Below, one piece after another: positions 40,255 through 41,986 of a stretch of 52,121 bases of DNA. The notes under the pieces are model-generated. The model made no database searches, had not been told where the DNA came from, and worked only from the letters and a program-made list of their open reading frames with translations. The DNA is from Candidatus Saccharimonadota bacterium (GTDB lineage Bacteria; Patescibacteriota; Saccharimonadia; Saccharimonadales; UBA4665), in assembly GCA_013289705.1 (NCBI GenBank), contig JABCZM010000009.1, positions 1-52,121 of the forward strand, written 5' to 3'. Positions within the stretch are counted from its first letter, which is position 1. The number at the start of each line of letters is the position of its first letter. The position numbers were made by a program, and so were the translations under genes.

Positions 40255-41373
40255 TTACTCACGAGGGCGTTGATTCATGTTTGTGTATAGGGCGTCATTG
40301 GCTGCAAGGTTTGGTGTGATAGCCCCTCGCGCAAGATAAAGTAAGAGGTTGGGGAGTGTTTCGATGATCCTTCCATTACCTTCATTGATGTATACCATTG
40401 ATCGCAGATTTTGATGTTCTAGATACGCCACGGTGCGCGCAAGGGTTTGTACATATTGGCGACTGATTTTTTTGTAAATTTCATATACATGTGCAACATC
40501 TTCATCAGTCGCCTGTAGCAAAAAACGATCAATAGCGAACACTTTTCGCGCTCCATTTGTGCCATACGAGTCAATGACGGCTGGCGTGGGTGGATAGTCT
40601 CTCATCAGCATGGTGGGTATCATTTCTGGCAAATAGCGATCCGCAACCATCACGCCAAATAAGGCCGCCTCAGTGCTTTCATTGGCCGCGCGGTGATATG
40701 GTGCATAATCGACTGCTATATTACGTGAACGATCCTCTATTGCTGGGTAGACACGTGGCTGAAGTTCGCGCGTAGGGGTATTTGTTTCGACGTGCGTATC
40801 GTTCCTACGTCGGAGCTCAGGGTACAGTAATTGAGCAGCCAAAGCCATTTCAAGTGGTAGTATGTGTGTACCATCTTCTTGTAATACGGCATGTAGACCT
40901 GGATCGCCTGGAGTGTAATCATTGGAAAGCAAGTAGTATAAAGCCCTAGCCACACGACCATTTGCAGTTAGGAATGGGTGTGTAGCTAAAACACCAGTGG
41001 CTAAGGTGAGCGGCTTATAATCCAATACAGGGCTAACCTGTGCGGTCTTAAGTATCGAGCTAAGCAGACGAATCTTGTCTTCCGGAGGAGGCATGACGTC
41101 AACCTTCATCGGCTCCGCTTGGTCACGGGTGACTTGGAAGTGGTCTGAAAGGAGTGCTGTGGTTGCAGGCTGATCAGTGAGCACACCGTCCATCTCTACG
41201 AGTAGGTCTAGAAAATCTTGAGGACCGAGTTGTTCTACGAATGTTACTCTTCCTTCTGCTGTGCTAAGTCGACTGCCGAGCCCTGAATTGAGAACAAACA
41301 CGTCAAATGCCTCGGCCTGTTGGTGCCGATTTACTTCAATTGGGTCTGGGGGTAGCCCCTCGCGGAAGAACAT
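40255..41373 (-). CDS. Fic-like protein with an altered active-site motif
   Basis: 372 residues, no membrane segment or signal. The segment THPFLTANGRVARALYYLL (131-149) matches the Fic motif HxFx(D/E)(G/A)N(G/K)R: His132, Phe134, Asn138, Gly139 and Arg140 are present, but the Mg2+-binding acidic position is Thr136. Fic enzymes attach AMP or other groups to proteins. Loss of the acidic residue usually lowers or changes this activity, so the protein may be inactive or use another donor. The C-terminal 200 residues are unfamiliar. The start lies 6 bp after TATAGT, so the gene should be leaderless. No antitoxin-like gene is adjacent. Confidence 0.6.
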   Translation of the reverse strand: MFFREGLPPDPIEVNRHQQAEAFDVFVLNSGLGSRLSTAEGRVTFVEQLGPQDFLDLLVEMDGVLTDQPATTALLSDHFQVTRDQAEPMKVDVMPPPEDKIRLLSSILKTAQVSPVLDYKPLTLATGVLATHPFLTANGRVARALYYLLSNDYTPGDPGLHAVLQEDGTHILPLEMALAAQLLYPELRRRNDTHVETNTPTRELQPRVYPAIEDRSRNIAVDYAPYHRAANESTEAALFGVMVADRYLPEMIPTMLMRDYPPTPAVIDSYGTNGARKVFAIDRFLLQATDEDVAHVYEIYKKISRQYVQTLARTVAYLEHQNLRSMVYINEGNGRIIETLPNLLLYLARGAITPNLAANDALYTNMNQRPRE

Positions 41374-41385: not shown

Positions 41386-41434
41386 GTAAAACTTAATTTG
41401 TAATTTTGCAATATCCTGTTATTTGACTTGCAAA

Positions 41435-41468
41435 ACAAAAGACCGGGGATTTCTCCCCGGTCTTTTGT
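41435..41468. terminator. Terminator of the RRM gene
   Basis: Perfect 15-bp stem ACAAAAGACCGGGGA / TCCCCGGTCTTTTGT with a TTTC loop, 16 bp after the RRM gene stop. GC-rich core flanked by A and T tracts. Confidence 0.92.
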
Positions 41469-41484
41469 TACATCGGTTGATGAA

Positions 41485-41805
41485 TTAGTAGCGGTTACCG
41501 CCACCAAAACCACCACCGTTGCCACCACCGCCACCGAATGAACGGTTTTCGCGGGGAGCTTGTGGGCGAGCTTCGCTAACTGCAACAGCGCGGCCGTTGA
41601 GTTCTTTGCCGTTGAGGGTGTCAACTGCAACCTTAGCTTCTTCGTCGCTGCTCATCTCTACGAAACCAAAGCCCTTAGAGCGGTTGGTATCGCGGTCGAT
41701 GATGACCTTTGCAGATACTACGGTGCCGGCTGGTGCAAAAAATGCAGACAGGTCGTCATCGGTAGCTGTGTAGGCCAAAGAGCCAACAAATAGTTTACTT
41801 GCCAT
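41485..41805 (-). CDS. RRM-type RNA-binding protein with a glycine-rich tail
   Basis: 106 residues. One RNA-recognition motif (about 3-80) with RNP2 KLFVGSLAY and RNP1 SKGFGFVEM, then a Gly/Asn/Arg-rich tail from about residue 86 to the end. This is the architecture of bacterial Rbp proteins best known from cyanobacteria, where they accumulate in the cold and act as RNA chaperones. The gene has a leader of about 145 nt in which a 9-bp hairpin covers the GAGG ribosome-binding site, so translation is probably regulated, perhaps by temperature or by the protein itself. A strong terminator follows. Confidence 0.96.
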   Translation of the reverse strand: MASKLFVGSLAYTATDDDLSAFFAPAGTVVSAKVIIDRDTNRSKGFGFVEMSSDEEAKVAVDTLNGKELNGRAVAVSEARPQAPRENRSFGGGGGNGGGFGGGNRY

Positions 41806-41809
41806 TAGT

Positions 41810-41840
41810 ACTTACCTCTTTCTTCGAACTTGAGGTAAGT
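41810..41840 (-). promoter_or_regulatory. Leader hairpin covering the RRM gene ribosome-binding site
   Basis: In the mRNA, ACTTACCTC pairs perfectly with GAGGTAAGT across a 13-nt loop. The 3' arm contains the GAGG Shine-Dalgarno and ends 4 nt before the ATG, so the closed form should block initiation. Confidence 0.75.
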
Positions 41841-41957
41841 TTTTCGGTATTCACCTGACACTTAGCTGCTCCCCATCGCGAAACAATTCTTTACTTATTA
41901 ATTTACCTAGACCGTTCACTTTGCAGCGAACTTCCTAGCAGCTTCTCTAGTAGCGAC
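41841..41957 (-). other. Remaining leader of the RRM gene
   Basis: Untranslated leader between the promoter and the regulatory hairpin. No ORF and no known riboswitch recognised. Confidence 0.4.
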
Positions 41958-41986
41958 ATTGTTACATCTTTACACCGAAGTTGCAA
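41958..41986 (-). promoter_or_regulatory. Probable promoter of the RRM gene
   Basis: On the minus strand, TTGCAA (41986-41981) and AACAAT (41963-41958) with a 17-bp spacer. A fair, not perfect, match. Confidence 0.45.

What the first reader, a model, noticed from the sequence alone, without database searches (positions are those of the whole stretch)
41810..41840. Hairpin sequestering the Shine-Dalgarno of the RRM RNA-chaperone gene
Seen: ACTTACCTC and GAGGTAAGT form a perfect 9-bp stem that includes the GAGG and ends 4 nt from the ATG, at the end of a leader of about 145 nt. Known: RRM-type Rbp proteins and cold-shock genes are often regulated through structured leaders. Inference: an RNA thermometer or autoregulatory switch, standing out in a region where most transcripts appear leaderless.
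Basis: partly seen in the sequence, partly recalled or inferred. Interest (0 to 1): 0.64.

Follow-up and report, generated by a model that had tools for sequence, protein, structure and literature searches.

The report
Pseudoknotted leader of RRM gene
The gene for a small RNA-binding protein in Saccharibacteria (tiny, host-dependent bacteria) starts with a previously unlisted, evolutionarily conserved RNA structure, a pseudoknot whose last strand can instead cover the ribosome-binding site, so this RNA probably sets how much of the protein is made.

Summary
In all 79 RRM orthologs of this type that I aligned from the bacterial family, the leader begins at a predicted extended -10 promoter and reads CUAGA / GCUGC / variable hairpin / UCUAG / AU-rich linker / GAGG-N-GCAGC-UAA-hairpin-UUA-CCUC, then SD and AUG. 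CUAGA pairs with UCUAG (P1), GCUGC with GCAGC (pseudoknot, PK), GAGG..UAA with UUA..CCUC (P3). All three show compensatory changes that shuffled controls never reach. A covariance model finds one copy per matching genome; every copy inspected at good scores lies directly before an RRM gene, in many families of Saccharimonadia. No Rfam family matches, including Chlorobi-RRM. The hairpin is predicted to stay closed up to 70 C, so a simple RNA thermometer is unlikely. Autogenous control by the RRM protein is the best guess; a cspA-like cold switch is the main rival. Neither was tested.

The parts
41951..41951 (-). predicted transcription start (purine just before CTAGA); TG-extended -10 at about 41958-41966
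   Evidence: Position-specific conservation over 79 orthologous upstream regions: T(-16) G(-15), A(-12), A(-10), T(-8), purine at -1, then near-invariant CTAGA
41946..41950 (-). P1 5' strand CUAGA
   Evidence: Pairs with UCUAG 41907-41911; 98.8% of cells paired in 100 leaders, with CG to UA and other double changes
41938..41942 (-). pseudoknot (PK) 5' strand GCUGC
   Evidence: Pairs with GCAGC 41865-41869; 99.6% of cells paired, compensatory changes at 3 of 5 pairs; RNAalifold predicts exactly this helix
41914..41931 (-). P2, variable hairpin (7 bp here)
   Evidence: Predicted in the minimum-energy fold; length and sequence vary between relatives
41907..41911 (-). P1 3' strand UCUAG
41871..41874 (-). 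P3a 5' strand GGGG (GAGG in most relatives)
   Evidence: Pairs with CCUC 41832-41835; double changes in all four pairs (GAGG/CCUC, GGAG/CUCC and others)
41865..41869 (-). PK 3' strand GCAGC, in the 6-nt bulge of P3
41861..41864 (-). P3b 5' strand UAAG
   Evidence: Pairs with CUUA 41836-41839
   Evidence: Sequence; both pairings cannot form at once; duplex with the SD region -14.1 kcal/mol, 0 of 200 shuffles as good
41810..41818 (-).
41485..41805 (-). RRM protein gene, 106 aa, RRM plus Gly-rich tail
   Evidence: RRM_1 E=4.2e-22; orthologs or paralogs in 88 of 93 family genomes
41434..41469 (.). long perfect inverted repeat with T-rich flanks after the RRM stop codon, probable terminator; suggests a single-gene transcript
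   Evidence: Inverted repeat and sequence; function is inference

Best explanation
A conserved cis-regulatory RNA of about 120 nt that controls translation of a single-RRM, glycine-tailed RNA-binding protein in Saccharimonadia. The transcript starts at the element. P1 (CUAGA/UCUAG) and PK (GCUGC/GCAGC) form an H-type pseudoknot; PK docks into the bulge of helix P3. In the window's lineage the P3 3' strand (CUUACCUC) is also the exact complement of the SD strand (GAGGUAAG). When PK+P3 form, the SD is free (ON); when they do not, the strand snaps onto the SD (OFF). I propose that the RRM protein is the signal: in excess it binds single-stranded conserved segments (AGCAGCUAA or the AU-rich linker), unzips PK/P3 and shuts off its own translation. 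Shown: conservation, covariation, position before RRM genes, mutual exclusivity of the pairings. Inferred: that P1 and PK coexist, which state is ON, the signal, and translation rather than mRNA decay as the output. In lineages without strong SD pairing the same PK/P3 would act by occupying the ribosome approach region.
For: All 79 aligned family orthologs carry the element. Covariation over 100 leaders: 94.5% of cells paired, 17 of 21 pairs with double changes, 140 double-changed cells against 36 in shuffles, 0/500 shuffles reach it; slid controls 25-48% paired. PK alone: 99.6% paired; G-C to A-U, U-A to C-G and C-G to U-A double changes, 0-1/500 shuffles. PK was not in model R1, so that alignment was not fitted to it, and RNAalifold returns exactly this helix. 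One copy per matching genome: own genome one hit, E=3e-9; order 93/393; class 65/393. All 18 further hits inspected, 15 of them from other families, lie directly before RRM genes. No copy before paralogous RRM genes or before RRM genes of other phyla (one weak hit elsewhere in L042 is a terminator-like hairpin). SD pairing: median duplex -11.25 kcal/mol per genus in CUUA-type leaders against -5.9 in the rest, P=2e-4. No U-run follows the SD hairpin, so it is not a terminator.
Against: No experiment. P1 and PK may be alternatives rather than simultaneous. Strong SD pairing is found in about nine of some 39 genera, so the SD exchange is not the universal mechanism. In the window P3 is weak (one G-U pair, no stable apical helix), and pseudoknot-free folding gives the SD hairpin about 99% at all ordinary temperatures, so without PK energy or a factor the gene would be OFF by default. 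Another RRM paralog in the same genome lacks the element, so the sensing partner need not be this RRM protein.
Confidence: 0.5

Rival explanations
1. Cold-responsive leader working like the E. coli cspA mRNA: at low temperature the pseudoknot and P3 are favoured and free the SD, at higher temperature the SD hairpin wins. The RRM protein would take the role of cold-shock-domain proteins.
For: Cold-shock-domain proteins are missing from the window's genome and from 55 of 59 family genomes searched, only 2 of 59 passing the family cut-off, while 9 of 14 control genomes ring. Two competing folds share one strand.
Against: No temperature data; pseudoknot-free folding shows no temperature shift between the two states. 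Strong SD pairing is not universal.
Confidence: 0.2
2. Small-molecule riboswitch: the PK-P3 junction is a ligand pocket.
For: Compact pseudoknot with near-invariant bulge nucleotides and a strand-exchange expression platform.
Against: Only RRM genes lie behind it, one copy per genome; metabolite riboswitches usually serve several genes of a pathway.
Confidence: 0.1
3. The structure protects the mRNA 5' end or serves as a decay or ribosome-standby element, and SD pairing is incidental.
For: P1 starts at the second nucleotide of the predicted transcript; many relatives lack strong SD pairing.
Against: Restricted to one gene family; SD complementarity of up to 9 bp recurs in several genera.
Confidence: 0.12
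4. Simple RNA thermometer: the SD hairpin melts at elevated temperature.
For: A perfect SD hairpin exists.
Against: Predicted stem -10.9 kcal/mol at 37 C and still formed at 70 C; known thermometer stems are weak and mismatched; the conserved part is elsewhere.
Confidence: 0.04

Closest known systems
Chlorobi-RRM RNA motif (Rfam RF01697; Weinberg et al. 2010, PMC2864571, listed there as probable cis-regulatory, not a riboswitch)
   Same: Conserved structured RNA associated with RRM-protein genes in bacteria
   Different: Different phylum; the Rfam model finds nothing in this genome or 58 relatives nor in the leader
E. coli cspA mRNA cold-sensing leader (from general knowledge)
   Same: Long leader of a nucleic-acid-chaperone gene with two competing folds, one pseudoknotted
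   Different: Gene family, sequence and layout differ; no temperature evidence here; no Rfam match
Autogenous leaders of ribosomal proteins (for example the S15 and S4 pseudoknot leaders; general knowledge)
   Same: Single-gene association and a pseudoknot close to the ribosome-binding site suggest product-mediated feedback
   Different: The product is an RRM protein, no rRNA-like site was identified, and binding is untested
RNA thermometers (ROSE, fourU; general knowledge)
   Same: SD inside a stem
   Different: Stem far too stable, no mismatches; no Rfam match

Membership tests
Chlorobi-RRM (RF01697) | match to the Rfam covariance model | tested here: not met
   No match to any Rfam family up to E=5 in the leader; 0 of 59 family genomes match RF01697
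Chlorobi-RRM (RF01697) | associated with an RRM-protein gene | tested here: met
Any described Rfam family | gathering-score match | tested here: not met
   Window (only two tRNAs), leader region and 20 related loci
RNA thermometer | SD helix that opens within the physiological temperature range | tested here: not met
   Computed SD unpaired 0.001 at 37 C, 0.03 at 70 C, pseudoknot-free model
cspA-type cold switch | fold changes with temperature so that the SD opens in the cold | tested here: inconclusive
   No shift in a pseudoknot-free model; the pseudoknot cannot be scored with these tools
Autogenous protein-binding leader | found only before the gene of the binding protein | tested here: met
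Autogenous protein-binding leader | product binds its leader and lowers its own expression | not testable with these tools
   needs binding and reporter assays
Riboswitch | direct binding of a metabolite | not testable with these tools
   no pathway association seen
H-type pseudoknot RNA | two crossing helices both supported by covariation | tested here: met
   P1 98.8% and PK 99.6% of cells paired, double changes in 4 of 5 and 3 of 5 pairs; simultaneous formation not shown

The most novel reading that the evidence does not exclude
A new class-wide family of autoregulatory mRNA leaders in which a bacterial RRM protein controls its own synthesis through a pseudoknot whose bulged helix and the SD helix compete for one strand: a pseudoknot switch read by an RRM protein, in an episymbiont lineage that has largely lost cold-shock-domain proteins.
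Probability: 0.4. Interest if true: 0.75.

Novelty: new variant of a known kind. Interest (0 to 1): 0.62.

Why it matters
Gene regulation in Saccharibacteria and other Patescibacteria is almost unexplored, and few bacterial RRM proteins have known RNA targets. A single-copy, covarying leader before the RRM gene gives a concrete candidate target for the protein and a defined switch that can be tested in vitro or in an E. coli reporter. It also suggests that RRM proteins stand in for cold-shock proteins in this lineage, and it adds a structured RNA absent from Rfam.

Tried and rejected
Known Rfam families: none match the window region, the leader, or 20 relatives; RF01697 tested by name and rejected. 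Simple thermometer: rejected on predicted stability. Chance hairpin: bare 9-bp hairpins are about as common as chance, so I did not rely on the hairpin itself. Generic promoter scan: found nothing; the promoter became visible only by aligning orthologs. Shared leader with the RRM paralogs: rejected, model R2 does not hit them, and RNAalifold gives no consensus structure for the paralog leaders. A weak R2 hit in a Komeilibacteria contig (L042) is a terminator-like hairpin, not an RRM leader. Presence outside the class: 287 genomes drawn across the phylum gave four hits, all in the window's own order. Phage copy of the leader: none. Papers on RRM leaders or riboswitches in Saccharibacteria: none found in the held library; the 2017 survey of 224 structured RNAs is not held, so a description there is not excluded beyond the Rfam negatives.

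Full report
OBSERVATION. The RRM gene lies on the minus strand at 41805..41485 (106 aa; Pfam RRM_1 E=4.2e-22). Read on that strand, ACTTACCTC (41840-41832) and GAGGTAAGT (41818-41810) are perfectly complementary over 9 bp with a 13-nt loop, and the 3' arm ends 4 nt before the ATG. Local folding gives -11.9 kcal/mol with 0 of 200 shuffles as stable. A bare 9-bp hairpin is not rare in 52 kb, so I looked for conservation.

WHERE IT IS FROM. The window is contig 9 of a 1.24-Mb genome. The nearest named RRM relatives are Candidatus Saccharibacteria records (JACMNI010000043.1, 88% identity; JAQGHB010000022.1, 71%). RRM orthologs or paralogs occur in 88 of 93 genomes of the family.

THE ELEMENT. Upstream sequences of the orthologs share one layout, aligned: CUAGA - GCUGC - variable hairpin - UUCUAG - AU-rich linker - GAGG-N-GCAGC-UAA - hairpin (often CUGG..CCAG) - UUA-CCUC - SD - AUG. 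Three long-range helices follow: P1 CUAGA/UCUAG, PK GCUGC/GCAGC, and P3 GAGG..UAA/UUA..CCUC, with the PK strand in the bulge of P3. P1 and PK cross, so together they make an H-type pseudoknot. The promoter also aligns: TG-extended -10 and a purine start immediately before CTAGA, so the RNA starts at the element, and in the window the leader is 146 nt.

COVARIATION. In 79 family leaders 93.4% of cells form standard pairs and 11 of 21 pairs show double changes; 0 of 500 shuffles reach any of the five measures. After adding other families and another order (100 leaders, aligned with a model that contained P1 and P3 but not PK) the figures are 94.5%, 17 of 21 pairs, 140 double-changed cells against 36 in shuffles; slid controls drop to 25-48% paired. 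PK alone is 99.6% paired, with G-C to A-U, U-A to C-G and C-G to U-A double changes in different lineages. RNAalifold, given this alignment, returns exactly PK and nothing else. The P1 and P3 counts on the second alignment lean towards the structure because the alignment was fitted to it; the first alignment (MAFFT) was not.

DISTRIBUTION. The covariance model R1 finds one place in the window's genome, this one (E=3e-9). It matches 93 of 393 genomes of the order and 65 of 393 of the class, including two from outside the order at weak scores, always one match per genome. I read 18 of the further hits, 15 from other families: every one is followed within about 35 nt by an RRM gene (for L207 the contig end cuts the gene, but its start is visible). 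Unfiltered search of RRM upstream regions from genomes without a clear hit adds divergent versions (L221, L240, L245, L246, L249, L250, L256), for example UUAGA/UCUAA with GCUGC/GCAGC outside the order; these rest on my reading plus E-values of 0.005-0.04. The element is absent from the RRM paralogs of the same family, from before the RRM genes of 78 loci in other groups, and from all genomes outside the order in a phylum-wide sample of 287.

The strand CUUACCUC (41839-41832) is the 3' side of P3 and also the 5' arm of the SD hairpin; the two pairings are mutually exclusive. The upstream strand GGGG[AGCAGC]UAAG is in effect the SD sequence GAGGUAAG split by the pseudoknot bulge. Leaders whose P3 strand reads CUUA (10 genera) pair strongly with their SD (median -11.25 kcal/mol per genus), the others weakly (-5.9; P=2e-4). 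So the SD exchange is a feature of part of the family, while PK and P3 are general. Most changes in the SD helix lose outer pairs; I do not claim covariation for it.

MECHANISM. Most likely the leader sets translation of the RRM protein, and the protein itself is the signal (autogenous control), because the element is found only before RRM genes and in one copy. In the window's lineage, PK+P3 hold the anti-SD strand and leave the SD free; loss of PK/P3 releases it onto the SD. Which partner tips the balance is inferred. Pseudoknot-free folding puts the SD hairpin at about 98-99% from 4 to 50 C and 93% at 70 C; this argues against a simple thermometer and implies that PK or a factor is needed for expression. 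A cspA-like cold switch remains open: cold-shock-domain proteins are missing from 55 of 59 family genomes, the window's included, so an RRM chaperone may fill their role.

COMPARISON. The nearest described thing is Chlorobi-RRM (RF01697), listed by Weinberg et al. 2010 (PMC2864571) as probably cis-regulatory and not a riboswitch. Its model finds nothing here. No Rfam family matches, and no held paper describes an RRM leader in Saccharibacteria. It is therefore a new family within a known kind (structured leaders of RNA-binding-protein genes), with a distinct architecture.

LIMITS. E-values of home-made models are rough; genome samples are draws, and strict filters lose weak matches, so prevalence figures are lower bounds. 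Sequences are related by descent, so cell counts are not independent events; the PK double changes come from at least three lineages. Simultaneous formation of P1 and PK, the ON state, the ligand and the output are not shown.

Noticed in passing
L135, L142, L150, L151, L158, L160, L163, L165, L166, L169 (upstream of the RRM start): Paralogous RRM genes of the same family carry a different conserved leader (GCAAGTRGTTAC ... CTATC ... CGAGCGATA); RNAalifold gave no consensus structure on ten sequences.
   Followed up: partly
L225, L228, L230, L232, L234-L238: RRM genes starting MYKLF in other families of the order share a third leader with TCTTATCTGTTC ... GTTCG ... GGTCGTNCCT.
   Followed up: no
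L244, L252, L253, L254: RRM genes of another family of the class share a fourth leader, TCTAGAAACAAGC ... GCTTGTCGAT ... CTCATTCCAGA.
   Followed up: no
L245, L246, L247, L249, L250, L256: Divergent version of the present element before RRM genes outside the order: GTTCTTAGATACTATGCTGCTACGGCTCTAA ... CTGGGTGCAGCTAA ... CCAG, keeping P1 and PK with changed P3.
   Followed up: partly
whole genome G000 and 58 family genomes: Cold-shock-domain proteins (PF00313) are missing from 55 of 59 genomes of the family.
   Followed up: partly
window, 42 ORFs of 150 aa or more: Only 9 of 42 long ORFs have a recognisable SD; many have a TATAAT-like box a few bases before the start codon, as expected for leaderless transcripts.
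   Followed up: partly
window 40255-41373, minus strand: Downstream gene product has a weak Fic/DOC match (E=1e-3, below the Pfam cut-off).
   Followed up: no
H1-H3 (Microcystis phage MaAM05, Acinetobacter phage MD-2021a): A few phages encode RRM proteins distantly related to this one (38-53% identity).
   Followed up: no
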